13,103 nt of DNA from contig CANGUI010000026.1 in NCBI GenBank assembly GCA_947457025.1, positions 1-13,103 of the forward strand, in the 5' to 3' direction. Below, in pieces: positions 276-12,929 of this stretch (its first letter is position 1; the number at the start of each line of letters is the position of its first letter). A program made the position numbers and the translations under genes. The notes under the pieces are model-generated. The model searched no databases. It saw only the letters and a program-made list of their open reading frames with translations, and was not told the origin of the DNA. The stretch comes from Flammeovirgaceae bacterium. GTDB lineage: Bacteria > Bacteroidota > Bacteroidia > Cytophagales > Cyclobacteriaceae.

Positions 276-784
276 TACGTAATCAGAATTTTCCGAATAG
301 AGCGAAAAGATAACAAAAATTTCTGAGGATGCGATTCGTTATGAGATGCCCGGCGAAAGAAAAAGTTGCCCATGGGAAAGGTGTTGGATGCCGCTAATCT
401 TACCAGAGTTAGGCCATGTAACGTCTCGAACGCGAAAGAAAATACGCGAAAAAAGCATGGTGAATGAGTTAGAGAGGAGACACGAAAAAAGTTACGATTG
501 CACATTGGAAGGACGTTGGCACCTGGCAGTCGAAAACGGAGTAAGGTTGCGTCTCGTTTCAGGTGTAAAAATGCAAAAATGAGTAATCAGGATCATGAAG
601 AAAAAACCGGTAAACAAAACCCGCATACAAAGATGCTAATCCAATTTACTCGCGCCAGCAGCAATACGACTTCTTCGATAGTGGTATTTGCTCGCTATGA
701 TCGGATGGCCGTGATCTTTACCAGAAGCGCCCAAGTAAACCATTACGTTTTACTACACGCATGCGCAATACATATATCTCCTCG
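276..784. other. 509 bp without a supported gene
   Basis: This stretch lies between the start of the PAS gene and the end of the first phosphoribosyltransferase gene, both on the minus strand. Open frames up to 116 codons exist, but they lack recognisable domains, overlap one another and have unlikely composition. I found no TGA-N6-TCA operator and no clear -7 element in the right place for the PAS gene, and no strong terminator hairpin after the phosphoribosyltransferase gene. It may be long untranslated sequence or decayed coding DNA; nothing decides this. Confidence 0.5.
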
Positions 785-1423
785 TTACGAGCCGGTTTCC
801 ACAAAACGCCTGATTTCCTGGCGGCTGGGTCGGGTGGTATCAGAATAATACTTTTTTGACGTTCCGATCTCGTGTTCCATACGAATAAAGTGCAACTCGT
901 CCACCTCGGCAATAAGAACCCGCGCTGCCTCCGCTTCCACAATCGGAATCGCCACCACGACTTTACCCGGCTTTTGCTTTCGGATTTCGTGTATACACGC
1001 GGCCAACACTTCGCTGGAGTGAAGCATGTCATCTACCACGATGACCGTTCGGTGAGCGAGAGAGATGGGTGGTTTCTTTTCGTGATAATACCGATTATCG
1101 TTGGCATTTCTCGCTTTTAGTATCGCGATTTGGTGGGCCACCAAATCCTGAGGAATACCACCGGTATCTGCTGGCATCACAACTTCCGTCAGACAAACAG
1201 AGCCGAGGTTCAGCGCATTGTTTCCCGGATGGTTGACTCGCTGCGCAGGTATCACATCCAATGGCAATGCCAACTGCCGGGCAATGGCAACTGCTACCGG
1301 AAGCCCACTCTGCGGAATTCCGATCACGACGGCATCCGTACCGGTATACCGAGCTAACTTTCTGGCGAGAATCACTCCAGATTCCTCACGCGAGATCATA
1401 GATACCTGTTCCCGAAGTTCCAT
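785..1423 (-). CDS. Phosphoribosyltransferase-fold protein with altered PRPP loop
   Basis: The 212-residue protein has the type I phosphoribosyltransferase layout found in many stress islands. The N-terminal strand-loop VIGIPQSGLPVA (33-44) matches the usual IPRGGVPVA segment. The hydrophobic strand and acidic pair TVIVVDD (126-132) begins the PRPP-binding motif. The loop that normally reads GLATGAT is here MLHSSEV (133-139), so the residues that hold the PRPP phosphate are largely replaced. That suggests loss of normal transferase activity, a different ligand or a regulatory role. The ATG at 1423 has AGGA close upstream. A Crp/Fnr-type dyad and a -7-like element lie just upstream, predicting a leader of about 14 nt. 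Length is close to that of the second copy (8351-8986), with clear divergence, so this is an old duplication or separate acquisition. The fold is well supported; the substrate is unknown. Confidence 0.85.
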   Translation of the reverse strand: MELREQVSMISREESGVILARKLARYTGTDAVVIGIPQSGLPVAVAIARQLALPLDVIPAQRVNHPGNNALNLGSVCLTEVVMPADTGGIPQDLVAHQIAILKARNANDNRYYHEKKPPISLAHRTVIVVDDMLHSSEVLAACIHEIRKQKPGKVVVAIPIVEAEAARVLIAEVDELHFIRMEHEIGTSKKYYSDTTRPSRQEIRRFVETGS

Positions 1424-1441: not shown

Positions 1442-1485
1442 CGAAACTACGTGATTACGGAACTGAGGTAAATGACTTCTGTCAT
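1442..1485 (-). promoter_or_regulatory. Crp/Fnr-type operator plus -7 element for the first phosphoribosyltransferase gene
   Basis: The dyad ATGACagaaGTCAT (minus-strand sense, 1485-1472) is a perfect inverted repeat with a 4-nt spacer. TAGTTTCG (1449-1442) matches the Bacteroidota -7 consensus TAnnTTTG at all but one fixed base. Centre-to-T distance is 29.5 bp, the class II activator spacing. If the first T is -12, transcription starts near 1437, about 14 nt before the ATG. Confidence 0.7.
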
Positions 1486-1855
1486 CAAGTAAAATGTAAA
1501 TAAGTCAGCGGGCGCATTGGCTTGACCATGCAGGTATGCTTTTCTCCGCTTAAGCAGAGCTTTTACTCCAGAATAGTGGCTGCGCCCTATACCCGAACCT
1601 GTTGCCACTCATTCTTATTTTTTGGAAAATGGTACTTTGTAACGCAACCCGGCCAATTTCAAACTCTAAAAAAAGCGATATGCCAAAAATCAGAAAGAAT
1701 TTCAGTTTACAGATTTCACGGTGCTAGCGAAAAACTCAAACAATCAACAAATCGCATGGATCGCTGGCTTTGTCTGCGGTCTCTCCCGGCTATGGAAGTG
1801 TGTCTCCTGACATGACAGCTACACCGGAGTCGTAGGCGCAAGCACGAGATTAAAT
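1486..1855. other. 370 bp between the reductase gene and the phosphoribosyltransferase promoter
   Basis: The stretch follows the stop of the minus-strand ribonucleotide reductase gene. The only sizeable open frame (plus strand, 1522-1815, 97 codons) shows no domain, signal peptide or plausible start context, so I do not call it a gene. I saw no convincing terminator. The presence of an independent operator for the next gene implies that the phosphoribosyltransferase gene is its own transcription unit. Confidence 0.45.
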
Positions 1856-3655
1856 TTACCTGCTGCACACGCTGCACCCCCTCAGGCCGGAGCTAAAACC
1901 CTGATAGAGTACTTGTTCAGATCTGGAATTATACCGATACACGGTGATGCCCTTGAGTCGGGATTTCCAGGCCCTCTCGTAGACGTGGCTGATGTCCGCG
2001 CGCGTTGCCGTCTCCGGGAGATTGATCGTCTTTGAAACCGCGTTGTCGGTAAATTTTTGAAAAGCCAGTTGGTGCTCCAGATGCCAGTTTGGAGCAATCT
2101 CCAGCGCTGTTTTGAAAATGTCGGACACGCCGGGTGGCAGATCCGGCACGTTCTGAAGTGTGCCGGTCTCCCGGATCGAAGCCATGACATCCGCTTTGTC
2201 GAGATGATGTGCCGAAAGGAAATGGATCAGTACCGGATTGATTTCCTGCCAGGTTTCATTTTCGAGCACATGCCAGCGGCGGGACGCGAGGGCAAAAAAT
2301 GGCTCGATCGAAGACGATGTGTTGGCGATAACGGAAATACTGCCGGTAGGCGCAATACTATTGCATGCCGCATGACGAAGGGGCAAACCCGGATAATAAA
2401 TGCTGCTCGGCCAGTTTTTGAATGCGCCCCGCTCGTCTGCCAGTTGGCGGGAGGCATTACGGCTTTGATACGATATGTAGTGCATCAACTGTCCACCCAG
2501 TTGAACTGCATGTTCGGAGTCGTAGGGAATCTCCAGCAAACTGAGTGCCTCAGTCCAGCCCATCACGCCCAACCCGATTTTCCGGTTTCCCCGCGCAACT
2601 GCTTCGATATCGGATGACAGGTACCTGTTGACCTCGATTACATCATCCAAAAAACGAATCACCGCGGCCACTGTCTTACCAAGATCTTCCCATTGAAAAG
2701 AATGATTTTCGGGTGACACAAACCGGATAAGGTTGATGGAAGCCAGGTTGCATGATTCGAATGGGAGCAAGGGCACCTCGCCACACGGATTGGTTGCATC
2801 GATTAAACCCGAGGCCGGTGTGGGGTTGACTTGGTTGATAGCATCCAGAAAAATTAGTCCTGGATCACCACCCTGCCAGGCACTGTCGGTAATCGCATTC
2901 CAAAGATCGCGTGCATTGACGGTTTGCGCCACCGTGCCGCTACCAGGATGAACAAGATTCCACACACCATTTCGTGCGACGGCATCCATAAATGCATCCC
3001 GTATCCCCACCGACAGGTTAAAATTCCGAAGCTGATGTTGTTCAGATTTACTCCGGACAAACTCGAGAATATCGGGATGGTCAACATTCAGAATGCCCAT
3101 GTTTGCCCCTCTTCGCTTTCCCCCCTGGCGGATATGATCCGTAACCGTATCAAAGATTTTCAGAAACGATACCGGGCCAGAAGAAAGGCCGGAGGTGGAT
3201 TGCAGCGGAGCTCCCTTCTCACGAAGTTTAGAAAAGTTAAAACCCGTACCTCCCCCACTCTGCTGAATCAGGGCCGAGAGTTTCAAAGTCGACAAGATAC
3301 TCTCCAGTGAATCCTCAATCGGCAACACAAAACATGCACTCAACTGATGTGCCGCCGTACCGGCATTCATGAGCGTCGGAGAATTTGGCAGAAATTTGAG
3401 TTCACACAACAACTTGAAAAAGCGTTCCTCCCAAAGCGCTGCAACCTGTGGCGTCGCCCACGCGAGTTCAGCCTGCGCAACGGCACGGGCCACCCGCCGG
3501 AACAGTTCACCGGGCGACTCATGAGTTCCATCCCCGCGTAACCGCACGTACCTGCTCTCCAGCAAATGACGGGCAGTTGGCGAAAGTCCGCTATCGCTGG
3601 CAGTGGCAAGATATTCACGCTGCCAATTCGTTTTCGTAACAGATGTTGCGCGCAT
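1856..3655 (-). CDS. nrdJ: Adenosylcobalamin-dependent (class II) ribonucleotide reductase
   Basis: This 599-residue enzyme reduces ribonucleotides to deoxyribonucleotides using vitamin B12 coenzyme, without needing oxygen for radical formation. Catalytic features are visible in order: LPNSPTLMNAG (89-99), the first redox cysteine in SACF (Cys108), QSGGGTGFNFS (132-142), the Asn-Pro-Cys-Gly-Glu triad (Asn289, Cys291, Glu293), the second redox cysteine in ESCNLASINL (Cys302), APTGSISVIANTSSSIEPFF (435-454) and a C-terminal CxxC tail (Cys594, Cys597) for re-reduction. It is shorter than many NrdJ proteins and starts without an ATP-cone domain, as in the compact NrdJ/NrdZ group. The ATG at 3655 lacks a clear ribosome site. 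It lies 67 bp after hsp20 on the same strand with no operator of its own, so read-through from the hsp20 promoter is likely. In M. tuberculosis the related nrdZ belongs to the DosR hypoxia regulon. Confidence 0.95.
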   Translation of the reverse strand: MRATSVTKTNWQREYLATASDSGLSPTARHLLESRYVRLRGDGTHESPGELFRRVARAVAQAELAWATPQVAALWEERFFKLLCELKFLPNSPTLMNAGTAAHQLSACFVLPIEDSLESILSTLKLSALIQQSGGGTGFNFSKLREKGAPLQSTSGLSSGPVSFLKIFDTVTDHIRQGGKRRGANMGILNVDHPDILEFVRSKSEQHQLRNFNLSVGIRDAFMDAVARNGVWNLVHPGSGTVAQTVNARDLWNAITDSAWQGGDPGLIFLDAINQVNPTPASGLIDATNPCGEVPLLPFESCNLASINLIRFVSPENHSFQWEDLGKTVAAVIRFLDDVIEVNRYLSSDIEAVARGNRKIGLGVMGWTEALSLLEIPYDSEHAVQLGGQLMHYISYQSRNASRQLADERGAFKNWPSSIYYPGLPLRHAACNSIAPTGSISVIANTSSSIEPFFALASRRWHVLENETWQEINPVLIHFLSAHHLDKADVMASIRETGTLQNVPDLPPGVSDIFKTALEIAPNWHLEHQLAFQKFTDNAVSKTINLPETATRADISHVYERAWKSRLKGITVYRYNSRSEQVLYQGFSSGLRGCSVCSR

Positions 3656-3722
3656 ACCGGTCTCTCAAACAAAACGGAAAAAAGGCTTCAACCTTACGGG
3701 ACTGAAACCTCCAATCGAAAAC

Positions 3723-4181
3723 CTACTTCACTGTTATTTCCTTTTTTGCCTTGGTTACCGTTACCTCCTTTTTTGGAAGGGTTAACGTGAGGATTCCATC
3801 TTCATACCGAGCCTGGATGTTATCGGGCTGGGCATTTTCCGGCACCAAAAAAGAGCGACTAAAAGAATGAAAGGAATACTCCTTGCGGGTATATCCATCC
3901 TTCTCCTCTTTGGTCTCCTCTTTCTCTAGACGTACCGTAAGCACATCATCGCCAGTCTCAACCTTGAAATCTTTCTTCGTCAAGCCAGGGGCGGCTAAAT
4001 CTATGCGGTAGTCCGCATCTGTCTCCCGAATGTTTACAGATGGAAGGTTGACACCCAGCCGGGACGGAAGCGTGGCAACATCTGCATCAAACAGGCCGGG
4101 CCTTGAAAATGGTCTGACACCAAAAAAATCGGATAGTAGCGCCGGGAACAAAGTCCCGCTTGTTCTGACAATTGTTTTCAT
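3723..4181 (-). CDS. Hsp20/alpha-crystallin small heat-shock protein
   Basis: The 152-residue protein is a cytoplasmic ATP-independent holdase chaperone. A short N-terminal arm (about 1-45) precedes the alpha-crystallin domain, which begins at PSVNIRETDADYRIDLAAPG (47-66) and carries the hallmark DGILTLTLPKK near 127-137. The tail KEITVK contains an I-x-V oligomerisation motif. Acidic and lysine-rich KEETKEEKDGYTRKEY marks the dimerisation loop. The length is typical of bacterial class A small heat-shock proteins. The ATG at 4181 lies about 18 nt after the predicted transcription start. It is probably the first gene of a unit with nrdJ. The pairing with a class II reductase and a phosphoribosyltransferase parallels hspX in the DosR regulon. 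Confidence 0.95.
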   Translation of the reverse strand: MKTIVRTSGTLFPALLSDFFGVRPFSRPGLFDADVATLPSRLGVNLPSVNIRETDADYRIDLAAPGLTKKDFKVETGDDVLTVRLEKEETKEEKDGYTRKEYSFHSFSRSFLVPENAQPDNIQARYEDGILTLTLPKKEVTVTKAKKEITVK

Positions 4182-4203
4182 ACCATTTTGATTTTTGTAT
4201 TGG

Positions 4204-4247
4204 CAAACCTAAGATGCTACGCCCCGGCCTGTAATGAGAAACGTCAT
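4204..4247 (-). promoter_or_regulatory. Crp/Fnr-type operator plus -7 element for hsp20 (and probably nrdJ)
   Basis: In minus-strand sense the dyad is ATGACgtttCTCAT (4247-4234), one base short of perfect symmetry. TAGGTTTG (4211-4204) matches the Bacteroidota -7 consensus at every fixed base. The spacing from dyad centre to the first T is 29.5 bp. The predicted start is near 4199, leaving an 18-nt leader. Confidence 0.72.
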
Positions 4248-4454
4248 ATTCGCAGCGGATTCTTGTCACGCCCTGACTGGAAAAAGTAAGGATTTGCTTA
4301 CTGCGCCATAATCGTTTAGCTGCTGGTGGGTGATGATGGGAATCGAAGCTAAAAGCCGTCATAGCCCTACTTTGCCCGTTGTAATAATCGTGGTAAACCG
4401 AAGACACTTTGCCAACCGGTGATCTCTTTGCCAGGTAGCTCATCTAGCGGCAAA

Positions 4455-4498
4455 ATGATTTTGATCATTGACCCCCGCTGGCCAGCCCGCTATTTTTG
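4455..4498 (+). promoter_or_regulatory. Crp/Fnr-type operator plus -7 element for the L,D-transpeptidase gene
   Basis: ATGATtttgATCAT (4455-4468) is a perfect dyad, and TATTTTTG (4491-4498) is a perfect -7 element 29.5 bp from its centre. This is the clearest example of the shared promoter in the window. The predicted start is near 4503, 19 nt before the ATG at 4522. It therefore argues against any coding start upstream of 4503. Confidence 0.75.
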
Positions 4499-4521
4499 AT
4501 TGTCAATTGGGCCAAAAATGT

Positions 4522-5490
4522 ATGGTAACCTTAGGGAAACAACAATTGGGTTGGCACTTGTGCCACAGTTGGTGGTTGCTACTGATTCTCTGGGGCAGTG
4601 TTTGTTCTCCTAAACATGAGCCCATTGTCTTCCCTCCTCCCTCCATTACGGATAGCCAGCAGGCGTCAAAGCAAAAAACCATCGAACCTGTCCGGGTTGA
4701 GGTGCCGCGTGCGATTACGATAAACACCTATTTTGATTTTATGGACAGTCTGGTACTTCGCCATGCGATAGACACCGCCTACGGCCTCGGTGAATATTTG
4801 CTGGTGCATGCTAATCCCTGGATTTTAGACTCGCTCAGAGCCACCGACTACTACACATTAAAAAACAAAGGCATCTACCAACCGGATCAACGCACCAGTG
4901 TGATACTTCAGAAAGGGGCTCACCTCATCATTCCCGACACTAGTGTCCGTCGCCAGATCCGAGAAAGACTCCGGACTACAACCGTAGATGTTAACATCCC
5001 GGAGTTTACCCTACGCCTCATTCAGCTCGGCGATACCATCCTGAGCTGCCGCGTCCGCGTCGGACGCTTTGCTGTAGAGTTCTTGCCGGTCGTTGGACAT
5101 GATGTGAATCTGCAGACCCCTATTGGCAGGGGTGAAATCGTGCGCATAGAGCGTAATCCCCTGTTCATTGATCCTGACAACGGCATACCAACACGGCGCA
5201 CAAGACGCGATGATGGAAGGTATACCGCCATGCCGCGTATTCCATGCCTCGAACCGGCCATCAATGGTATCCGGCACGGCTCCTTGATCCACGCCACGAC
5301 AAATATCCAGACACTTGGTAAGGCATATTCCCACGGCTGTATTGGCACCTCCGAGCCCGATGCCTGGATGATTTATTACAATGCACCACTCGGCACACGG
5401 GTATTGTTTCGATACGATCTCAAAATCCGCGATCAAACCGGGAAGATGGTTGCTCTCCGCGATATCTATAAAAAAAGAAGACGGGAATAA
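4522..5490 (+). CDS. L,D-transpeptidase (YkuD fold), exported
   Basis: The 322-residue enzyme is predicted to form 3-3 peptidoglycan cross-links or anchor proteins to the wall in the periplasm. A hydrophobic segment WWLLLILWGSVCS (17-29) follows a short basic start and acts as signal peptide or membrane anchor; the cysteine might be lipidated but the lipobox is poor. The YkuD domain occupies about residues 155-310. It has HGSLIHATT (His252, His257) and the catalytic SHGCIG motif (His271, Cys273). The residue after CI is Gly where Arg is usual. The frame is open back to a TTG at 4468, but the predicted promoter overlaps that stretch, so the ATG at 4522 is chosen. A short inverted repeat, TGGCACttGTGCCA (4552-4565), lies inside the early coding region. 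The gene is divergent from hsp20 and under the same type of operator. Confidence 0.9.
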   Translation: MVTLGKQQLGWHLCHSWWLLLILWGSVCSPKHEPIVFPPPSITDSQQASKQKTIEPVRVEVPRAITINTYFDFMDSLVLRHAIDTAYGLGEYLLVHANPWILDSLRATDYYTLKNKGIYQPDQRTSVILQKGAHLIIPDTSVRRQIRERLRTTTVDVNIPEFTLRLIQLGDTILSCRVRVGRFAVEFLPVVGHDVNLQTPIGRGEIVRIERNPLFIDPDNGIPTRRTRRDDGRYTAMPRIPCLEPAINGIRHGSLIHATTNIQTLGKAYSHGCIGTSEPDAWMIYYNAPLGTRVLFRYDLKIRDQTGKMVALRDIYKKRRRE

Positions 5491-5511
5491 CATCCGCCGT
5501 TACTGCCATAC

Positions 5512-5529
5512 ACCGGGAAAAATCCCGGT
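5512..5529 (+). terminator. Possible terminator or mRNA-end hairpin after the L,D-transpeptidase gene
   Basis: ACCGGGAaaaaTCCCGGT is a perfect 7-bp stem with a 4-nt loop, 22 nt past the stop codon. It lacks a T tract, so it may stabilise the transcript end or give weak termination, not classical intrinsic termination. Confidence 0.45.
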
Positions 5530-5619
5530 TGCGAGGCTCTGCCCAGGTGTAATTCCGCTAAGTAGCCTGAAGGGTATTGTCGCTAACGCCCGACTCTCCT
5601 CGAAGGCTACAGCCTGATG

Positions 5620-5643
5620 ATTTCAATCTCGACAAGTTGAAAT
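5620..5643. repeat. Inverted repeat upstream of the bactofilin-like gene
   Basis: ATTTCAA (5620-5626) and TTGAAAT (5637-5643) form a perfect 7-bp inverted repeat with a 10-nt spacer. It abuts and slightly overlaps the degenerate operator at 5639-5652. It could bind a second regulator or be chance in AT-rich DNA. Confidence 0.35.
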
Positions 5644-5682
5644 GAAAATCATGTGCCGGCAGGTACTTCTGAGATACTTTTG
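5639..5682 (+). promoter_or_regulatory. Half-degenerate Crp/Fnr-type operator plus -7 element for the bactofilin-like gene
   Basis: TACTTTTG (5675-5682) is a perfect -7 element. At exactly the spacing seen for its neighbours lies GAAATgaaaATCAT (5639-5652): the promoter-proximal half is perfect and the distal half is degenerate. The predicted start is near 5687. Weak regulator binding, or loss of the distal half, is the likely reading. Confidence 0.5.
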
Positions 5683-5744
5683 ACCGTCCGGATGAAGTGC
5701 TCGAAAAAAGCATCTTCCGGCTGACGAATCCAATCCAGGTAACC

Positions 5745-6929
5745 ATGAAACTAGTACTTGCGTTTTTGCTGATCTTGCTCACCCCACTCGGCATATCTAC
5801 CCGATCGGGGGATAACATTGTCATTGACACGCCTCAACCTGACGACGTATATATTGCCGGCGGTACGGTTATCGTTAATGCGCCCATACGGGGAGACTTG
5901 ATCATCGCTGGTGGCGACGTTACCATCAACGACTCAGTGCAACATGATCTGCTAATCGCCGGAGGAAACGTCGTGATCAACGGGTACGTTGGCGATGATC
6001 TTCGATGTGTGGGCGGTAACATACACCTGTCACAAACCATTGCTGACGATGCGATGGTAATGGGTGGCGGGATCGCCGTGACAAAGGCCGCCAACATCCG
6101 GGGGAATCTTATCTCCCTGGGCGGGGAGACTTCGATTGACGGACAAGTGGACGGTATCGTCAATTCGTGGGCAGAAGAAATCACCTTCACGGGCGTAGCC
6201 CTCCAGGCACTGGATTTACGGGCAGATGAAATTGAATTTAATGGGCGTGTTGCAGGAGAAGCAACTTTGGCGGCTCAGCACATTTCCTTTGGCCCCGAGG
6301 CAGCGCTGGAAAAAGGAATCAGATTTTGGAACCCGGAAGGGAAACTGGACATCCCGAATCGCGCGGCAGCAACGCCTGCAGTTTTTGACAACTCCCTCAG
6401 CACCGAATCGCCGCGATGGGATTTTGCGGATTTTTCATTCGGTTTACTGCTCGTTGGCTACTTCATCACGGCATTGTTGATGATCTATATTTTCGAAACC
6501 ACAATCGGATCTACCGTGCAAAGGGCGGCTGGTAACGTACTCAACAAATCCCTTGCATCGCTTGGGCTCGGCATACTGCTTTGCCTGGGCTTACCTATCG
6601 TTACCGTGCTGCTGCTGATCACGATCATCGGCATTCCGATCGCACTCATCTTGTTGTTTGTGACCATTGCACTCCTATTGGCGGGAACATCCCTGACTGC
6701 GCTGATGACCGCTCATTGGATCAACCGGGTGTTTTACAAAACATCGTGGACCACCACCCAGCTGATCCTGACTGCTTTCGGTATTTTCATGCTCTTCAAA
6801 CTGATCACCTTCACACCTGTTGTAGGACCTGCTGTTATGGTTTTGCTGATTTGTATGGCTTACGGTGCTATGCTGATTACTGTGCGCAGAAATATTGAAC
6901 CGGGAACGCCCGCCTGGCGCAAAACATAA
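5745..6929 (+). CDS. Bactofilin-like polymer-forming protein with signal peptide and C-terminal membrane helices
   Basis: The 394-residue protein begins MKLVLAFLLILLTPLG, a clear signal peptide. Residues about 25-200 are short beta repeats of the kind GDLIIAGGDVTIN and HDLLIAGGNVVIN, the right-handed beta-helix pattern of bactofilin and polymer-forming domains. Hydrophobic segments at about 231-250, 272-292, 294-322, 338-356 and 358-380 form the membrane part. The repeats are thus exported and anchored, unlike classical cytoplasmic bactofilins. An in-frame GTG at 5697 would add 16 residues before the signal peptide; the ATG at 5745, preceded by AGG, is preferred. It lies between a wall cross-linking enzyme and a hydrolase on the same strand, which suggests an envelope-scaffold role under stress. 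That role is inference. Confidence 0.8.
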   Translation: MKLVLAFLLILLTPLGISTRSGDNIVIDTPQPDDVYIAGGTVIVNAPIRGDLIIAGGDVTINDSVQHDLLIAGGNVVINGYVGDDLRCVGGNIHLSQTIADDAMVMGGGIAVTKAANIRGNLISLGGETSIDGQVDGIVNSWAEEITFTGVALQALDLRADEIEFNGRVAGEATLAAQHISFGPEAALEKGIRFWNPEGKLDIPNRAAATPAVFDNSLSTESPRWDFADFSFGLLLVGYFITALLMIYIFETTIGSTVQRAAGNVLNKSLASLGLGILLCLGLPIVTVLLLITIIGIPIALILLFVTIALLLAGTSLTALMTAHWINRVFYKTSWTTTQLILTAFGIFMLFKLITFTPVVGPAVMVLLICMAYGAMLITVRRNIEPGTPAWRKT

Positions 6930-6940
6930 AATCACCAACC

Positions 6941-6956
6941 GGCAAAACAAATTGCC
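6941..6956 (+). other. Small stem-loop between the bactofilin-like and hydrolase genes
   Basis: GGCAAaacaaaTTGCC forms a 5-bp stem 12 nt after the stop codon. The stem is short and no T tract follows. The 93-bp gap has no operator, so read-through into the hydrolase gene is likely. Confidence 0.3.
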
Positions 6957-7022
6957 CTGATGTACTTTCCCGATCCTCATCGCCCCCGTGTTAACCGGTA
7001 ACCAAAAAACAAGGCCTCTGGT

Positions 7023-7745
7023 ATGAACCCAATGCCATCCGTGTGGATAGAAAGCAGCACACCCCGGCAACTACCACCCGAAACCGAGAAACACATCCGG
7101 ATTCCGGTCGGTCAAACCCTACTGGCAGCAAATCTCACGCTCCCCGCACGCGCAAACTCGCTGGTAATCTTTTCGCACGGTAGTGGGAGCAGTCGATTCA
7201 GCCCCAGAAACAACTTTGTTGCCAAGCACCTGCAAAAAATGAAAATGGGTACGTTGTTGGTTGACCTGCTTACCCCGGGGGAGGATTCCGTCTATGCTAA
7301 CCGATTCAACATTGACTTGCTTACCGATCGCCTGCTGAGCATTACGAAATGGGTAGCTACACACACAGATCTGAAAGGCATGCCTATTGGTTACTTTGGC
7401 GCGAGTACCGGTGCCGCTTCTGCCTTACGTGCGGCCATCCGGTTACCACAACGGATTGGCGCTATCGTCTCCCGCGGTGGAAGGCCTGATCTTGCCCAAC
7501 ACAAACTGGGTCAGGTAAAAGCGGCCACGCTGCTGATCGTGGGAGAGCTGGATTCTGATGTCTTGCGGCTGAATCAGCAGGCCTTTGAGGCGTTACATTG
7601 TATGAAAGAACTGCGGGTGATCGCCAATGCCACTCACCTGTTTGAAGAACCCGGAGCACTGGAAGAAGTAGCCCAATTAGCCGGCACCTGGTTTACAACT
7701 TTCTTGTCTCCTGCCGATCGGGGAATGGTGCAATCGCCAGAGTGA
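7023..7745 (+). CDS. Alpha/beta hydrolase, dienelactone-hydrolase-like
   Basis: The 240-residue protein has the full alpha/beta hydrolase order: oxyanion-region SHGSGSSRFSPRN (51-63), a nucleophile elbow GASTG (Ser128), an acid in GELDSD (Asp177 or Asp179) and the catalytic histidine in NATHLFEEPG (His205). The HGSGSSRxSPRN signature and the histidine followed by LFEEPG are typical of the stress-island group that is often fused to, or next to, a phosphoribosyltransferase, as in M. tuberculosis Rv0571c. Here the two are separate genes, 605 bp apart. There is no signal peptide, so it is cytoplasmic; the substrate is unknown. A second ATG three codons in is an alternative start. No own operator was found, so cotranscription with the upstream gene is likely. 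Confidence 0.88.
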   Translation: MNPMPSVWIESSTPRQLPPETEKHIRIPVGQTLLAANLTLPARANSLVIFSHGSGSSRFSPRNNFVAKHLQKMKMGTLLVDLLTPGEDSVYANRFNIDLLTDRLLSITKWVATHTDLKGMPIGYFGASTGAASALRAAIRLPQRIGAIVSRGGRPDLAQHKLGQVKAATLLIVGELDSDVLRLNQQAFEALHCMKELRVIANATHLFEEPGALEEVAQLAGTWFTTFLSPADRGMVQSPE

Positions 7746-8350
7746 ATGCCTACCTGAATGGGATGAGGCTGACCGTAATCCCAAAATAGTATCGGCAGTA
7801 ATGTGGCAATTCGCCCGATCGTAGCGCCACAGGATAAAGGCTCCTTCGAATTCATTTCCACTGATTTCAAGATGTTGCATAAGCTATTTTCTATACAGAG
7901 CCCGATTACGACCAGCTAAAAAATCAACCCGCCCCATGTAGCCATACAAGCGAAACTCAGGAATAATTTTCTCTGAAAAAGTATGCGCCTGTATCTATAC
8001 CCCGAACGGTACGTAAAAAGCACGGGTGTTTACAGTGTCCGCCTTGAGAATGTAGCCGGCCAATCGACAGTGTCAGTACGTTTCGTAGGGTGAGGTAAAC
8101 TACTTGAGCAAACAATAATCTGCTGCCAGGCTGACGGACGTCAGTGCAGCTGCATGCGGTGGTGGATAAATTCGCAACAGGTGGTTGAGATCAACGGTCT
8201 GAAACAGTTGACGGCGAGGTGAAGTGCCGCCTAAAGGCCAGATCACAGCAGATACCTTGGGGCCAATAACCAGAACCCATTCAAAAGTAGATTACAGCCC
8301 AGGGCGAATAAAATTGAAACTAGTAACAATACAAGAAAACGAAGAACACT
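7746..8350. other. 605 bp intergenic region holding a promoter and long leader
   Basis: The only supported elements are the operator and -7 element at 8131-8174. The left 385 bp contain short open frames on both strands without reliable identity. One (7983-8093, 36 codons) resembles a beta-strand sorting or immunoglobulin-like tail, but upstream frames are closed by stops. The region may include decayed genes between the hydrolase and phosphoribosyltransferase genes. Confidence 0.45.
8131..8174 (+). promoter_or_regulatory. Crp/Fnr-type operator plus -7 element for the second phosphoribosyltransferase gene
   Basis: CTGACggacGTCAG (8131-8144) is a perfect dyad. TAAATTCG (8167-8174) differs from TAnnTTTG at one fixed base and starts 29.5 bp from the dyad centre, as at the other genes. 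Predicted transcription starts near 8179, giving an unusually long leader of about 172 nt. Confidence 0.62.
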
Positions 8351-8986
8351 ATGATACGCGATCGGATACAAGCTGGGCATTTACTGACAGCCAGATTAAA
8401 GCACCTCACCTTTGAGAACGGTGTGGTTCTGGCAATTCCTCGAGGCGGTGTGCCCGTGGCAGCAGTCGTGGCAGGTGAATTGAATCTTCCGCTAGACTTG
8501 TTAATGTCTAAAAAAATCGGTCACCCGCTGAATGCTGAATTTGCTATTGGATCGGTGACCGTCAAAGACGTTATTCTGGATGAGAGCACAGCGGACTTCC
8601 CCCGTTCGTATGTAGACGCCGAAATTCGAAAAATACGCGATTCGCTTTCGAAACGATACGCATCCCTCACCAACGGAAAAACCCCTTTGACCTTACATGG
8701 TAGAGATGTTGTTATCATTGACGATGGTTTAGCAACAGGCAATACGATGCTGGCCTGCGTGAAGAGCGTAAGGCGGCAACATCCACATTCGGTCACTGTC
8801 GCGGTCCCGGTAGCCTCGCCGTTCGCATTAGAAAAAATCAGCGCCACGGCAGATCGCTTCATCTGTTTAGAAACCCCCGCACTCTTTCGAGCTGTTGGCG
8901 AATGCTATGAGGATTTTTCGGAGATATCCGATGAATCGGTACGCGAATTAATGACTGCCTCTCAATCACACCTGAAAAACGCCTGA
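8351..8986 (+). CDS. Phosphoribosyltransferase (canonical PRPP-binding motif)
   Basis: The 211-residue protein is a type I phosphoribosyltransferase. It begins MIRDRIQAGHLLTARL, like many stress-island members. It has the IPRGGVPVA loop (29-37), a KKIGHP segment (54-59) and an intact PRPP motif VVIIDDGLATGNTM (120-133). The family includes the N-terminal half of M. tuberculosis Rv0571c; its substrate is not established. An in-frame stop at 8324-8326 with no other start codon before 8351 fixes the ATG. In contrast to the first copy (785-1423), the catalytic loop is conserved, so this copy is probably enzymatically active. A long leader separates it from its predicted promoter. Confidence 0.92.
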   Translation: MIRDRIQAGHLLTARLKHLTFENGVVLAIPRGGVPVAAVVAGELNLPLDLLMSKKIGHPLNAEFAIGSVTVKDVILDESTADFPRSYVDAEIRKIRDSLSKRYASLTNGKTPLTLHGRDVVIIDDGLATGNTMLACVKSVRRQHPHSVTVAVPVASPFALEKISATADRFICLETPALFRAVGECYEDFSEISDESVRELMTASQSHLKNA

Positions 8987-9112
8987 GGTATACTGAAATT
9001 ACAATCAATCCCTCATCTGGCGGCTACGACTATTTTCAAGATACACATATCCCTCTACTGGTTTATCTCGCAAACTGCCAAAATGGACTACCCATTTCTC
9101 GGTCTCACACAA

Positions 9113-9853
9113 TTACGGCGCACCCGGCTTGCCTATTTCGCCTCTTGCCCTCCAGAAAACCACACGCTCCCGAATTTTGAAATCGTTCCGGAGTTCCTTC
9201 CGATGGAGCGGCTTTACCGGAAACCTCCGCATGATCCGGTCAATGGCGGGGTGAACATCATAGCGTATGTACGATGGATCATATATGTCGCCCTCCGCAC
9301 TGCCCGTCCATATCAGTCTTTGCAGCTGTCTGTCGTAAACATTGACCGTAATGGTACCCCGCACAAAATATCGATTGTACGTTGTAAGCCGCTCGTCCCA
9401 GCCGGGGGGATAGTATCCCCACCCGTACCAGGTGTAGTATCGGTAGTATGGATAATAGTACGGAAAGTAGTACGGGCTGTGGAAGTAATAGGGTGGATAC
9501 GGCCGGCTGCTGTAGGTAACGATCTTCTCCCGCTTTTCATTCAGCAGCACGAGCTGGAGGATCAGATCAGGCGAATCAACATCTACCAAGTAGCCCCGAT
9601 GACCCAGGCAGTGTGTAATGTAGTTCTTTGCATTGTTTCGAACGATGTCGTTATCATACGGTGTGCCTTCGAACTCTTTTTGCGGCAGCGCCACCCCACT
9701 ATCGGGTGCCCACGCAAAAGTTCTGTAGCTCGAGAAATCGATACGGCGATCCACATCAGAATAAATATCCTGATACGTGCCGCAACTGAAAGCCATGTAG
9801 GCAAATACAACGATGGTTAAAAGCCGGACGTAGGAAGTCATACTCTTTAGCAT
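9113..9853 (-). CDS. DUF4136-type lipoprotein with Tyr/Pro-rich insert
   Basis: The 246-residue protein has a hydrophobic signal segment ending in AFSCG (21-25), with Cys24 the likely lipidated residue. The following IYSDVDRRIDFSSYRTFAWAP (30-50) is the characteristic opening of DUF4136 proteins, common in Bacteroidota envelopes. A central stretch (about 113-150) is extremely rich in Tyr, Pro and Trp and probably forms an extended loop. The C-terminal part resumes beta structure (GTITVNVYDRQLQRLIWTGSAEGDI, in pieces at 166-190). The family function is unknown. An alternative ATG four codons in (9841) gives a shorter signal peptide. An operator-like dyad lies about 130 bp upstream, but without a -7 element at the expected spacing, so regulation is unclear. 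Confidence 0.82.
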   Translation of the reverse strand: MLKSMTSYVRLLTIVVFAYMAFSCGTYQDIYSDVDRRIDFSSYRTFAWAPDSGVALPQKEFEGTPYDNDIVRNNAKNYITHCLGHRGYLVDVDSPDLILQLVLLNEKREKIVTYSSRPYPPYYFHSPYYFPYYYPYYRYYTWYGWGYYPPGWDERLTTYNRYFVRGTITVNVYDRQLQRLIWTGSAEGDIYDPSYIRYDVHPAIDRIMRRFPVKPLHRKELRNDFKIRERVVFWRARGEIGKPGAP

Positions 9854-9978
9854 TTATGTTCTGCCGCAAATTTCTACTCATCGCAGTCAACCGCCAATGA
9901 CCGATCTGTGCGCCACCGGTGATTGTTATCCTGGGGCTGAGCCATTTTCGGTGACCGCCTGCATTTCCATCCAAAATC

Positions 9979-9992
9979 CTGATATTAATCAT
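9979..9992. promoter_or_regulatory. Orphan Crp/Fnr-type dyad
   Basis: CTGATattaATCAT matches the shared operator with one asymmetric outer base. Neither strand has a TAnnTTTG-like element at the 29.5-bp spacing found elsewhere. It lies between the DUF4136 lipoprotein gene (minus) and a doubtful small lipoprotein frame (plus). It could act at a distance, repress, or be fortuitous. Confidence 0.4.
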
Positions 9993-10003
9993 CGCTTTTA
10001 CAG

Positions 10004-10018
10004 GCCATGTGTCATGGC
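10004..10018. repeat. Short perfect inverted repeat next to the orphan dyad
   Basis: GCCATGtgtCATGGC is a perfect 6-bp stem with a 3-nt loop, 11 bp right of the dyad at 9979-9992. It could be a regulator site or a small RNA hairpin; no T tract follows on either strand. Confidence 0.35.
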
Positions 10019-10196
10019 TGAAAAATGAGACATCCCGTAATTTCGAATCTGATCAGGAAAAAATCGAGAAGGAAATGACAACGCCAGCAGGTGCTTTCAA
10101 TGCGGGGATTTGGGTGCCATTACATGCATCCGCACCATGCACTGTTGGGTTTGGACTAAGGATACTGCTTACCACTACTCCTATCTACGATCGCAT

Positions 10197-10442
10197 ATGA
10201 AAATCGGGTTGCTTTGCTTTGTGTTGCTGTGTTTATGTGAGTTGGGTTGCCGACCCAGCCGGCAATTGAAGACCATTTTGGAGGGGGGAACGACCCGCGA
10301 TACAAGCCACCCGGCGGTAACGAACAATCCCGTCTATCGGAAATGGTCTCATCCTGGACAAGGGTTATTAACAACCTGCTGCAAGTTGCGTCCAGAGGAC
10401 TGTGATCAGGGCGCTGCCTCGGCTGAATCTTGCAGCCACTGA
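10197..10442 (+). CDS. Possible small lipoprotein (uncertain)
   Basis: An 81-codon frame starts with MKIGLLCFVLLCLCELGC, a plausible lipoprotein signal peptide with a lipobox-like LGC at Cys18. The remainder is polar and Cys-containing, without a recognised domain. Its last 37 bp overlap the convergent end of the 10406-10891 gene. The signal peptide is the only evidence, so it may be a small gene, a truncated lipoprotein gene or chance. No matched promoter was found. Confidence 0.35.
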   Translation: MKIGLLCFVLLCLCELGCRPSRQLKTILEGGTTRDTSHPAVTNNPVYRKWSHPGQGLLTTCCKLRPEDCDQGAASAESCSH

Positions 10443-10891
10443 AGTAGCGGAAGGGCCCGACCGAATTCAATTTCCCAAACCAACAGCATAACATTTGCTG
10501 CACTTGCCAGCACGATCATCCCAACCAGGAAGAGGCGGAAGTTGTTTCGGCTGACGATGCCGGCCAGGGCAAGGAGCACCGGCGCGAGGGTGATCCAATT
10601 CGGATAAACCGGAAAAATCAGATGACCCGCAATGCCACAGATCAGGGTGAAGATGTGTCCCACGAGGAAGAGCAACCGCTGAGTTTCAGTGCGGTTGGCA
10701 ATCGCGGCCACTCCAAAAATGAGGTATCCATTTAACGGTAACAGCACTGCCAATCCGATGATCTCAAATCCCCACGGACCACCACCCTCCCGAATGGTTT
10801 TCAGCGTGAGCGGCAGAGACACAAGTAACGAGAGCCCGATTAGCATCCAGCCGGATAGTTTGAGTACGAGACCGACCTTCGGGTTTGTCAT
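10406..10891 (-). CDS. Small four-helix membrane protein, translationally coupled to ftsH
   Basis: The 161-residue protein consists of about four to five hydrophobic segments (about 11-29, 42-64, 73-92, 99-112 and 115-140), with a short charged C-terminus. I do not recognise a family. Its ATG (10891-10889) overlaps the TGA of ftsH (10890-10888), an overlap typical of coupled translation. It therefore probably works with, or is controlled alongside, this FtsH; a modulator or substrate-adaptor role is conceivable but unproven. Confidence 0.8.
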   Translation of the reverse strand: MTNPKVGLVLKLSGWMLIGLSLLVSLPLTLKTIREGGGPWGFEIIGLAVLLPLNGYLIFGVAAIANRTETQRLLFLVGHIFTLICGIAGHLIFPVYPNWITLAPVLLALAGIVSRNNFRLFLVGMIVLASAANVMLLVWEIEFGRALPLLQWLQDSAEAAP

Positions 10892-12831
10892 GCTTGCGTG
10901 TCGGGTTTCAGCGGTATTTCCGCCTCCACTTGGGGGCGGTGCCCCAATAGGTCTTCAAGTTCCTTCCGGAAGATTACCTCCTTTGAGAGTAATCGGCCGG
11001 CAAGGGTATCCAAAGCCGCGCGGTGACGGGCCAGAATTTCTTTGGCACGATCGTAGCACCCCTCCACCAGGGCGCGTACTTCCTGATCAATCAGGCGGGC
11101 GGTATCTTCACTATACGGTTTCTGAAATTCCGATCGGCCGGTGGAGTCAAGAAAACTCACGTTGCCAATCGTTTTGTTAAAACCAAAGTAAGCCACAACG
11201 GTGTAGGCATCGCGGGTAACTTTCTCCAGATCATCTACTGCTCCGGATGTGACCTCGCCGAACACTACTTCTTCCGCGGCCCGTCCGGCAAGAGCTGCGG
11301 TGATGCGTTGCGTAAACTGCCGCAGCGACCGCAACTGGCGCTCCTCGGGCAGGTACCAGGCAGCGCCAAGTGATTTCCCCCGCGGAATGATGGATACTTT
11401 CATCAGCGGATCAATGTCGGGCAACATCCAGCCCACCACTGCGTGCCCAGCTTCGTGAAAGGCAATGATCTTTTTTTCTGTGGGTGAGATGATTTTACTT
11501 TTCTTTTCTAAACCCGCTATGATTCGGTCGATGGCATCGATGAAGTCTTCCTTTTCTACCTGTCCTTTCTTTTTACGGGCTGCAATCAATGCGGCCTCAT
11601 TGCAGATATTGGAAATGTCAGCTCCGGAAAAGCCCGGCGTTTGGGCTGCGAGAAAGTCAACGTCTACGCCGGCCGCGCAGGTTAGCGGGCGCAGGTGTAC
11701 GCCGAAGATTGCCTTCCGCTCACTCTGATTGGGCAACTCCAGATAAATGTGCCGATCGAAACGGCCGGGTCGGAGCAAGGCCGGGTCGAGGATGTCCGCG
11801 CGGTTAGTAGCAGCCAGCACGATCACACCGCTGTTGGTACCGAAGCCATCCAGCTCGGTTAGCAATTGGTTGAGCGTGCTTTCCCGCTCATCATTTGCCC
11901 CGCTGTAGAGGGTATTGCGCCCGCGCGACCTGCCGACAGCATCAATCTCATCGATAAAAACAATGCAGGGAGCCCGTTCTTTTGCCTGCCGGAAAAGGTC
12001 GCGCACGCGCGACGCCCCCACGCCTACAAACATCTCAACAAACTCCGATCCAGAAAGGGTAAAAAATGGAACCTGGGCTTCACCCGCAACAGCCTTCGCC
12101 AGCAGCGTTTTGCCTGTGCCCGGCGGCCCAACAATGATTACTCCTTTCGGGATTTTGGCGCCAAGCCGCGTGTAGCGCTGCGGCTCCTTCAGAAAATCCA
12201 CAATCTCTTTCACTTCCTGCTTGGCTTCTTCCAACCCCGCCACATCTTGGAAGGTAACCGTACTCTTGTTGTCTTTATCGAGCAGACGCGCGGTTGTTCT
12301 TCCGAAGTTGAAAACTGACGACCCACCCATACCGCTTCCACCCAGCGCTAGCAGCCATCGCCCCGAGAGCAGGATGATCAGCATGAAAAACAACCACGGC
12401 AGCCACGTCGTAAAGTCACCCCGATTTTCATATTCTACTGCCACCTGGCGTGCCGGTGGCAGCCCACGCTGCGCTTCCTCTAATTTGCGCTCCAGCGATT
12501 CCACTGATCCGATTGTAAACCTATAATGCGGACCAGGCTGAATACCCTGACCCCAGCGCGGTGTCATGACAGCCCGAAACGCGGAGTCGTTGGCAAACTC
12601 CTTCTTGATGTAAACGGTGGCCATTTCCTGATTCTGAACCACCAGCTTTTCAACCGCGCCGCGGCTGAGCATCTCGGTTTGAAACCTCTGCCAGGAGATT
12701 ACGCGGCCAGCGGAAGCCGGGCGATAGAGAAAGTAGAAAAGAATCACGAAAAGCACCAGCAGGGTAATCCACCAGAAACCAATTTTGACTCTGGGGCGAT
12801 CTGGCTGCTTTTGTGCTGCTTTTTTTGACAT
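10888..12831 (-). CDS. ftsH: ATP-dependent zinc metalloprotease FtsH
   Basis: The 647-residue inner-membrane AAA+ protease degrades damaged membrane and regulatory proteins. Order of features: N-terminal membrane helix (about 17-37), periplasmic domain (about 40-138), second helix (about 143-163), Walker A GPPGTGKT (235-242), pore loop EMFVGVG (Phe268), Walker B VFIDEID (291-297), SRH arginines (Arg354, Arg357) and the zinc site HEAGH (His459, Glu460, His463) with third ligand Asp534 in [10 protein letters not shown]. All key residues are intact and the length is normal. Its location among stress genes and the shared operator suggest a condition-specific paralogue beside a housekeeping FtsH elsewhere; this is inference. 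It is the first gene of a two-gene unit. Confidence 0.97.
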
Positions 12832-12885
12832 CCCTTTTTGTGGCGGCGGCCGGATGAATTAAATGCCGCCTGCCCAACCTTTGGC

Positions 12886-12929
12886 TAAAGATGGGCAAGA
12901 TGCCGATCGCTCACCATGATAAAAATCAT
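12886..12929 (-). promoter_or_regulatory. Crp/Fnr-type operator plus weak -7 element for ftsH
   Basis: In minus-strand sense ATGATttttATCAT (12929-12916) is a perfect dyad. At the shared 29.5-bp spacing lies CATCTTTA (12893-12886), matching TAnnTTTG at four of six fixed bases. The poor -7 element would make the promoter more dependent on the activator. The predicted start is near 12881, giving a leader of about 50 nt. Confidence 0.6.

What the first reader, a model, noticed from the sequence alone, without database searches (positions are those of the whole stretch)
1442..12929. A Crp/Fnr-type regulon with rigid class II promoter geometry in a Bacteroidota genome
A dyad close to ATGAY-N4-RTCAT precedes five genes or operons (positions 1472-1485, 4234-4247, 4455-4468, 8131-8144, 12916-12929), with a half-degenerate copy at 5639-5652. 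In all six the dyad centre is exactly 29.5 bp from the first base of a -7-like element (TAGTTTCG, TAGGTTTG, TATTTTTG, TACTTTTG, TAAATTCG, CATCTTTA). TGA-N6-TCA should occur by chance about 0.7 times in the roughly 3 kb of non-coding DNA here (my arithmetic); I count six. Known class II Crp/Fnr promoters have the activator centred at -41.5, which gives exactly this distance to the first base of the -10 hexamer. The site differs from classical FNR (TTGAT-N4-ATCAA) at the outermost base. A Bacteroidota -7 element combined with such an operator replacing the -33 element looks little described.
Basis: partly seen in the sequence, partly recalled or inferred. Interest (0 to 1): 0.88.

Follow-up and report, generated by a model that had tools for sequence, protein, structure and literature searches.

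The report
Twin-operator low-oxygen stress promoters
A cluster of stress genes in an uncultured Cyclobacteriaceae bacterium is preceded by promoters in which Fnr-type DNA sites, often two spaced two helical turns apart, sit at a fixed distance from the phylum's own kind of promoter box, probably so that an oxygen-responsive regulator can switch the genes on.

Summary
All six dyads are where stated, each 29.5 bp from a -7-like element. Six strict TGA-N6-TCA dyads in 2,983 non-coding bases compare with 0.80 in shuffles (0 of 3000 reached 6).

(1) Many such promoters are twin: a second dyad lies 22 bp upstream. In 80 loci around the FNR-like gene the 22-bp pair occurs 49 times against 0.44 for other spacings. 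The window's sixth strict dyad (9980) is the distal site of a probable seventh promoter. (2) Two candidate regulators: an FNR-like protein with four invariant cysteines, and a receiver-Crp fusion, beside a PAS kinase in 17 of 29 loci; most of these kinases keep the FixL/DosP haem histidine, as does the PAS at the window's left edge. (3) In relatives the same promoters precede ccoNO, usp and hsp20, so the regulon looks microaerobic.

Against: an unbiased 800-kb sample of one relative shows no general enrichment, so the regulon is small and clustered. Starts, binding and oxygen response are unmeasured. Verdict: new variant of a known kind.

The parts
1472..1485 (-). proximal dyad (-41.5) of phosphoribosyltransferase-1 promoter; -7 TAGTTTCG at 1442-1449; only a weak distal match
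785..1423 (-). phosphoribosyltransferase (PF00156)
4234..4247 (-). proximal dyad of hsp20 promoter; -7 TAGGTTTG at 4204-4211
4257..4268 (-). distal dyad (-63.5), TGACAAGAATCC, 7 of 8 consensus letters
3723..4181 (-). Hsp20; probably in one operon with nrdJ (67-bp gap)
   Evidence: coordinates; operon is inference
1856..3655 (-). adenosylcobalamin-dependent ribonucleotide reductase NrdJ
   Evidence: TIGR02504 above cut-off
4455..4468 (+). perfect proximal dyad ATGATTTTGATCAT of the L,D-transpeptidase promoter; -7 TATTTTTG at 4491-4498
4522..5490 (+). L,D-transpeptidase (YkuD); start moved from TTG 4468 to ATG 4522, downstream of the predicted start site
   Evidence: start is inference
5618..5629 (+). 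distal dyad TGATTTCAATCT (7 of 8)
5639..5652 (+). degenerate proximal dyad; -7 TACTTTTG at 5675-5682
5745..6929 (+). weakly bactofilin-like protein (below Pfam cut-off), followed by an alpha/beta-hydrolase-like protein 7023-7745 (also below cut-off)
8131..8144 (+). proximal dyad CTGACGGACGTCAG before phosphoribosyltransferase-2 (8351-8986); -7 TAAATTCG at 8167-8174
10003..10014 (+). proximal half-site (..TCA) of the seventh promoter; -7 TAATTTCG at 10038-10045; before the small ORF 10200-10442 (no Pfam match)
12916..12929 (-). proximal dyad of ftsH promoter; -7 CATCTTTA (off consensus) at 12886-12893
10888..12831 (-). FtsH protease, overlapping a downstream ORF 10406-10891 (no Pfam match)
3..338 (-). 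N-terminal PAS domain of a protein cut by the contig end; nearest solved structures are the haem-PAS oxygen sensors DosP and FixL, with the haem-ligand histidine retained (ligand role recalled)

Best explanation
These are activator-dependent promoters of a small microaerobic/stress regulon. A Crp/Fnr-type dimer binds TGAY-N4-RTCA centred at -41.5 (or -42.5), where it replaces the weak -33 contact of the Bacteroidota sigma factor and touches RNA polymerase in class II fashion. A second dimer, where the distal dyad is good, binds 22 bp (two turns) further up on the same face and strengthens binding or polymerase contact. The input is most likely oxygen, through one or both of two regulators with the same recognition-helix type (E-x-x-I/N-R): an FNR-like protein with four invariant cysteines, and a receiver-Crp fusion, often next to a haem-PAS histidine kinase, which works like FixL-FixJ-FixK with J and K in one chain. 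Shown: sites, spacing, conservation, gene content, regulator anatomy. Inferred: binding, activation rather than repression, oxygen as signal, which regulator acts on which promoter.
For: Window sites exceed shuffles and the genome's own background. Of 58 genomes searched for hsp20, 30 loci were kept; offset 29 scored 8, no other offset (5-69) above 4; two of the 8 are the window itself, two (L071) precede usp, four precede hsp20 in G022, G038, G016, G053. In 80 loci around the FNR-like gene: offset 29, 38 hits; offset 51, 55 hits; no other above 12; dyad pairs at 22 bp 49, next 66 bp with 9, mean of others 0.44. The composite follows the FNR-like gene in 22 of 25 own-genus loci, each time before a Usp gene, and in 13 of 20 Roseivirga-group loci, before a gene without Pfam match in the three scanned; half-sites and -7 hold 1.4-1.9 bits per base, the 21-base spacer 0.35-0.42. 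Around 30 receiver-Crp genes offset 52 gives 13 hits and offset 30 gives 5, no other above 3, and 22-bp pairs number 6 against at most 1 at the other spacings shown. Twenty stretches of 14 relatives (328,948 bp, partly overlapping those loci): offsets 29/51/52 = 12/14/9 vs mean 0.94, max 3; 30 of 31 sites were not flagged as inside a called gene other than their target. Targets include ccoN-O, Usp, Hsp20, erythromycin esterase. The own FNR-like and receiver-Crp contigs carry the composite before usp and before the receiver-Crp gene. Cysteines C11, C14, C60, C113 invariant in 81 of 81. Phospho-acceptor D and K in 33 of 33 receiver-Crp rows; haem His in 22 of 24 PAS proteins found.
Against: No transcription start, binding or oxygen response is measured. 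In an evenly spaced 800-kb sample of relative G024, offset 29 is not enriched (3 vs mean 1.1, max 4) and no 22-bp pair occurs (0 of 11 pairs within 200 bp); one clean hit precedes ccoNO. Only 3 of 35 Algoriphagus/Echinicola/Persicobacter-side loci have the composite. In the window the distal dyad is good at 3 of 7 promoters; among six single-dyad composites of relatives a 22-bp shift is not among the six best. The own receiver-Crp promoter and most window promoters use offset 29, whereas receiver-Crp loci of relatives mostly use 30/52, so which regulator acts here is open. Two own-genome -7 boxes (TAGGTTTG) have G at -10 and -9, nearly absent in Flavobacterium promoters. FNR ligand C29 has no counterpart. 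No ccoO was found in the own genome (70% complete).
Confidence: 0.75

Rival explanations
1. Same operators, but the bound protein represses: a dimer at -41.5 covering the -33 region blocks the polymerase and is released by a stress signal.
For: The proximal dyad overlaps the region just upstream of -33. The receiver-Crp gene's own promoter carries the site, as does the FNR-like gene itself in L215, compatible with negative autoregulation.
Against: A fixed helical distance to the -7 box is expected of activators and not needed by repressors. Targets such as ccoNO are FNR/FixK targets elsewhere (PMC4999443, passages).
Confidence: 0.12
2. The regulator is a cAMP- or other ligand-driven Crp (carbon or general stress), not an oxygen-responsive one.
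For: Both candidates scanned have a cyclic-nucleotide-type domain. The best PDB match of the FNR-like protein is a Crp/Fnr-family protein (2gau, E 1.8e-36) ahead of FNR. Crp/Fnr homologues of Bacteroidota MAGs have been predicted to sense carbon (PMC8510549, abstract and passages).
Against: Four invariant cysteines, pairing of receiver-Crp with haem-PAS-like kinases and cbb3 oxidase as target point to oxygen.
Confidence: 0.1
3. Chance or compositional artefact: AT-rich intergenic DNA gives TGA/TCA dyads and TAnnTT boxes.
For: Single composites do occur elsewhere at low rate (2 in 741 kb; 3 at offset 29 in 800 kb).
Against: Shuffles, offset specificity and conservation of half-sites over spacer.
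Confidence: 0.03

Closest known systems
E. coli-type FNR class II promoters (TTGAT-N4-ATCAA at about -41.5; recalled, and PMC5934665 passages, for class II overlap of the -35 region)
   Same: Dyad core TGAT-N4-ATCA, centre at -41.5 from the -7/-10 box, Crp-fold regulator with E and R of the recognition helix conserved, usp gene next to the fnr gene in the own genus (uspE in E. coli).
   Different: Bacteroidota -7 box instead of TATAAT; outer base not T-fixed and S212 replaced by I or N; often a second dyad 22 bp upstream; one cysteine ligand position not matched.
FixL-FixJ-FixK cascade of rhizobia and Caulobacter
   Same: Haem-PAS-like kinase, receiver with phospho-acceptor, Crp/Fnr-type output, cbb3 oxidase among FixK targets (PMC4999443, passages).
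   Different: Receiver and Crp parts are one protein, so there is no separate FixJ and no transcriptional step to FixK.
Rhizobium leguminosarum FnrN anaerobox promoter of a small heat shock protein
   Same: Low-oxygen, FnrN-dependent sHsp gene with one good and one imperfect anaerobox (PMC11784457, passages).
   Different: There the boxes are 56 bp apart (centres -87.5 and -143.5 from the start codon), not 22 bp; different phylum and sigma factor.
HcpR2 regulon of Bacteroides and others
   Same: Crp/Fnr family member in Bacteroidota.
   Different: Common HcpR2 motif is GTAACnnnnGTTAC (P. gingivalis differs) and the predicted regulon in most Bacteroides only hcp (PMC1274295, passages).

Membership tests
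FNR (oxygen-sensing Fe-S regulator) | Crp fold: cNMP-type domain plus Crp HTH | tested here: met
   Pfam PF00027 and PF13545 over cut-off; matches FNR structure 8qto at E 1.5e-20
FNR (oxygen-sensing Fe-S regulator) | four cluster cysteines at positions of E. coli C20, C23, C29, C122 (ligand roles recalled) | tested here: inconclusive
   C20, C23, C122 matched by C11, C14, C113; C29 absent; a fourth invariant Cys at C60 (81 of 81). NCBIfam Fnr model hit below cut-off (94 vs 228 bits)
FNR (oxygen-sensing Fe-S regulator) | recognition helix E-x-x-S-R | tested here: not met
   E and R kept, S replaced by I in 80 of 81 rows, one row gapped
FNR (oxygen-sensing Fe-S regulator) | oxygen-labile DNA binding | not testable with these tools
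   needs protein
Class II activator promoter | activator centred at about -41.5 | tested here: met
   centre 29.5 bp from T-12 (T-12 from PMC6847099); mapped starts of this organism not available
FixL | haem-PAS with conserved proximal histidine | tested here: met
   window PAS aligned to DosP with the His matched; His in 22 of 24 PAS proteins. Search by similarity to a His-bearing query favours His; haem binding itself not testable here
FixL | HisKA + HATPase kinase | tested here: inconclusive
   present in the four relatives scanned; the window copy is cut by the contig end
FixJ | receiver plus LuxR-type HTH output (recalled) | tested here: not met
   output is cNMP-type domain plus Crp HTH
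FixK | stand-alone Crp/Fnr protein without receiver (recalled) | tested here: not met
   PF00072 receiver at N-terminus
HcpR2 | operator GTAACnnnnGTTAC, target hcp | tested here: not met
   operators are TGAY-N4-RTCA; no hcp-type match among the targets scanned with Pfam

The most novel reading that the evidence does not exclude
Cytophagales run a one-step FixL pathway: a haem-PAS kinase phosphorylates a FixJ::FixK-like receiver-Crp protein, which, together or in competition with a variant-cluster FNR, binds as two dimers 22 bp apart on promoters tuned to the Bacteroidota sigma factor. The two regulators would prefer registers one base apart (-41.5/-63.5 and -42.5/-64.5), giving cooperative, oxygen-graded control of cbb3 oxidase and a stress-gene island.
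Probability: 0.4. Interest if true: 0.72.

Novelty: new variant of a known kind. Interest (0 to 1): 0.58.

Why it matters
Activator-dependent promoters seem little described for the Bacteroidota sigma factor. Searches for 'TAnnTTTG' with 'Crp' (0 papers), for Bacteroidetes + FNR + class II + promoter + universal stress (1 paper, on universal stress proteins in disease), and the related searches in an open-access library showed no description in the titles and abstract starts listed (searches listed 20 of 29, 10 of 37 and 12 of 99 papers); subscription journals are mostly not covered. A rule as simple as 'dyad at -41.5, optional second dyad 22 bp up, TAnnTTTG' would let low-oxygen regulons be read from sequence in a large group of bacteria, and gives a concrete test of how a class II activator meets a sigma factor that hardly uses a -33 element. 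The kinase/receiver-Crp pair would be a compact version of the FixLJ-K cascade.

Tried and rejected
The position-weight-matrix scan is trained on its own sites and is used only to list candidates; its best reversed-sequence control scored 17.0. Candidates at or below about that level (L009, L013, L022, L032, L037, L038, L052 and lower rows) were not counted as members.

Splitting the sites between the two regulators by outer base (A for receiver-Crp, T for FNR-like) was considered and not kept: G053, where no full-length receiver-Crp match was listed, has an A-type site before hsp20, and both families share the recognition-helix type. A split by register (29/51 beside FNR-like, 30/52 beside receiver-Crp genes) fits most loci with a hit but not the own receiver-Crp promoter (29) nor two FNR-like loci, L142 and L144 (30/52). 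A genome-wide large regulon was rejected. In one search three of the four offset-30 hits are copies within one repeated unit (L275).

Mends made on checking: one search read the wrong PAS column (69 instead of 70); one search corrects it. I had taken the gene after the composite in the Roseivirga group for usp; searches show that it is not recognisably Usp (0 of 13). I had counted PAS adjacency only from loci where a PAS was found; one search gives it per receiver-Crp locus. Structure prediction was not run because its output, as described, gives no coordinates with which to measure cysteine distances.


Full report
Setting. The window is the whole of contig C26 of a 70%-complete, 2.26-Mb metagenome-assembled genome in 358 contigs. 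Its nearest relatives by FNR-like protein (80-89% identity) are MAGs labelled Cyclobacteriaceae, Flammeovirgaceae, Cytophagales or Bacteroidetes bacterium. The window encodes two phosphoribosyltransferases, Hsp20, an adenosylcobalamin-dependent ribonucleotide reductase, an L,D-transpeptidase, a weakly bactofilin-like protein, an alpha/beta-hydrolase-like protein, a DUF4136 protein, FtsH and, at its left edge, the start of a PAS protein.

The observation. All six dyads and -7 boxes are as described. Twelve strict TGA-N6-TCA dyads occur in the window; six are non-coding, against a shuffle mean of 0.80 (0 of 3000 shuffles reach six), and four form strict composites with TAnnTT at 29.5 bp (shuffle mean 0.0047). 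In 57 contigs of the same genome not chosen for a regulator (741,479 bp) there are 245 strict dyads and two such composites. Published promoter maps place the T of TANNTTTG at -12 (PMC6847099, passages; PMC9723704 gives -12 to -5, passages), so the dyad centre is -41.5. The predicted start then lies 14, 18 and 19 bases before the first phosphoribosyltransferase, hsp20 and the transpeptidase (the last with its start moved to ATG 4522), which is sensible; for the second phosphoribosyltransferase the leader would be 172 bases, which is long (arithmetic).

Outside the window. The 30 loci kept from a search of 58 genomes for hsp20 give eight hits at offset 29 against at most four at any other offset from 5 to 69; four of the eight precede hsp20 orthologues in other genomes, two are the window itself, two precede usp genes. 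The own genome's contigs that carry the FNR-like and receiver-Crp genes hold the composite before usp (C103), before a 200-residue gene (C86) and before the receiver-Crp gene itself (C86; -7 TACTTTTA). The exact TAnnTTTG form is found in no other contig of the 60 sampled besides C86 and C103.

The twin architecture. In 80 loci around the FNR-like gene, offset 29 gives 38 hits and offset 51 gives 55, all other offsets at most 12. The second peak is a second dyad 22 bp upstream of the first, as the printed sites show; strict pairs at 22 bp number 49, at 66 bp nine, and other spacings up to 200 bp average 0.44. The composite lies after the FNR-like gene in 22 of 25 own-genus loci, each time before a Usp gene, and in 13 of 20 Roseivirga-group loci, where the next gene is not recognisably Usp (0 of 13) and has no Pfam match in the three scanned. 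In L215 the composite stands 29 bp before the FNR-like gene itself. In the own genus the consensus is cTGACAAAAgTCAT-TTTT-TTGAT--c-ATCATTA, then 21 weakly conserved bases, then TActTTTG. Half-sites and -7 box hold 1.4-1.9 bits per base, the inner four bases of the distal dyad 1.4-1.7 and the linker 1.2-1.4, against 0.6-0.7 in the inner bases of the proximal dyad, 0.35-0.42 in the spacer and 0.28-0.73 upstream. These loci are related by descent, so the counts are not independent events; the uneven conservation is the argument. In 20 stretches of 14 relatives chosen for hsp20 or receiver-Crp genes (so overlapping the loci above in part), offsets 29, 51 and 52 give 12, 14 and 9 hits against a mean of 0.94 and a maximum of 3. 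Of 31 sites listed there, 30 were not flagged as inside a called gene other than their target, and 29 lie between 37 bp after and 145 bp before a called start.

Two registers. Around 30 receiver-Crp genes (about 1.5 kb each side), offset 52 gives 13 hits in 12 loci and offset 30 gives five, no other offset exceeding three; offset 29 gives three, two in the own locus and one in G023; 22-bp pairs number six against at most one at any other spacing shown. In the 30 loci kept by the FNR-like search the pair is at 29/51 (13 and 14 hits; 30/52 give five and three). So the pair keeps 22 bp but sits one base further up beside most receiver-Crp genes that have one. The own receiver-Crp promoter (29) and FNR-like loci L142 and L144 (30/52) are exceptions.

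The twin in the window. Over the nine own-genome composites (six in the window, two in C86, one in C103), a shift of 22 bp gives the best mean match to TGAY-N4-RTCA (5.11 of 8 letters; next best 3.22). It is clear at hsp20, the bactofilin-like gene and the receiver-Crp gene (7 of 8) and at usp (8 of 8), middling at the second phosphoribosyltransferase (5) and poor at the others. For six single-dyad composites of relatives 22 bp is not among the six best shifts. The dyad 9980-9991 is probably the distal member (-64.5) of a seventh promoter with a proximal half-site and TAATTTCG at 10038. A strict 22-bp pair in contig C8 stands before a 71-residue gene followed by genes that read as hypA and hypB, the latter with Pfam CobW/HypB/UreG support.

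What the regulon holds. Targets in relatives include cbb3 oxidase ccoN-O fusions (G023, G031 by Pfam; G024, from the unbiased sample, recognised from its sequence only), eight Usp proteins confirmed by Pfam, Hsp20, an erythromycin esterase, a pyridoxamine-phosphate-oxidase-like protein, baeRF family 3, DUF892, a membrane-fusion protein and a PAS kinase; four other scanned targets have no Pfam match. No ccoO was found in the own genome, which is incomplete. This resembles FNR/FnrN/FixK regulons; FnrN-dependent low-oxygen induction of a small heat shock protein is reported in Rhizobium leguminosarum (PMC11784457, passages).

Candidate regulators. Three proteins pass the Crp HTH cut-off. (i) The FNR-like protein (P0002) has four cysteines invariant in 81 of 81 sequences; three align with E. 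coli FNR C20, C23 and C122, the fourth, C60, does not align with C29 (E. coli sequence; ligand roles recalled). (ii) P0001 is a receiver joined to a Crp; full-length relatives were listed in 28 of 57 relatives (counted from the listing). The phospho-acceptor aspartate and lysine are in 33 of 33 rows, the own protein counted twice. A PAS ORF stands beside the receiver-Crp gene on the same strand in 17 of the 29 loci with a full receiver-Crp ORF (flanks of about 1.5 kb; the own locus has none) and in 7 of 10 longer stretches, two of which (L258, L260) repeat loci already counted. Of 24 distinct PAS proteins found in these 50 loci, 22 keep the haem-ligand histidine; the search by similarity favours this. 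The PAS at the window's edge matches DosP (E 1.5e-9) and FixL (E 9.7e-8); 13 of its 16 PDB hits are DosP or FixL, and the histidine is aligned in the DosP match shown. The kinase half of the window's protein is beyond the contig end. (iii) A third Crp protein on C146 was not pursued. In both families the recognition helix keeps E and R of FNR, but the serine between is I (80 of 81 rows, one gapped; 26 of 33 rows) or N (6 of 33 rows, two of them the own receiver-Crp). That fits a relaxed or altered outer base; the link of FNR S212 with the outer T is recalled.

Results against. An evenly spaced 800-kb sample of a closed relative (G024, which has the FNR-like gene) shows no enrichment at offset 29 (3 against a mean of 1.1, maximum 4) and no pair at 22 bp (0 of 11 pairs within 200 bp); of two hits at offset 52 one stands 32 bp before ccoNO. 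The regulon is therefore small and clustered. The Algoriphagus/Echinicola/Persicobacter-side loci mostly lack the composite (3 of 35). Two own-genome -7 boxes (TAGGTTTG, hsp20 and C86) carry G at -10 and -9, which Flavobacterium promoters almost never have; this could mean weak, activator-dependent boxes, or a different sigma preference. No experiment bears on binding, starts or signal.

Comparison and novelty. Each element is known: class II FNR activation (PMC5934665, passages), the -7 box, haem-PAS kinases, Crp/Fnr regulators. In the open library I saw no paper that joins a Crp/Fnr operator to the Bacteroidota -7 box (16 papers hold TAnnTTTG, of which I opened passages in two), and none describing the 22-bp twin or a haem-PAS/receiver-Crp pair in Bacteroidota. 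Apart from the papers named with 'passages' (and the abstract of PMC8510549), only listings, titles and starts of abstracts were seen. Passages of PMC12040651 (P. gingivalis Crp homologue) gave nothing on promoter geometry. I file it as a new variant of a known kind.

Noticed in passing
window 3-338 (-): PAS domain most similar to DosP and FixL haem-PAS sensors, cut by the contig end; relatives carry similar PAS proteins beside receiver-Crp genes.
   Followed up: partly
L001 / C103; L266: The FNR-like gene is followed by a usp gene, as fnr is by uspE in E. coli K-12.
   Followed up: no
L012 (C8) about 5305 (-): Strict 22-bp twin dyad before a 71-residue gene and genes that read as hypA/hypB.
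   Followed up: partly
L032 (C29) 2593 (+): Dyad CATGATTAAAATCAGT with TATCTTGC at 29.5 bp, 28 bp before a gene that reads as an acetyl-CoA hydrolase/transferase; matrix score just below the best control.
   Followed up: no
L275 10487-11134: Three copies of a unit about 323 bp long in G024, each with a dyad and a -7-like box; looks like a repeat array.
   Followed up: no
L003 (C146): Third Crp/Fnr protein of the genome, beside a protein that reads as metallo-beta-lactamase fold; perhaps a different regulon.
   Followed up: no
L189-L210, after the FNR-like gene: In the Roseivirga group the twin promoter stands before a gene of about 260 residues without Pfam match (three scanned), in the place where the own genus has usp.
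   Followed up: partly
L166-L210, linker between the two dyads: A conserved TTTT run just after the distal dyad, in both the own genus and the Roseivirga group.
   Followed up: no
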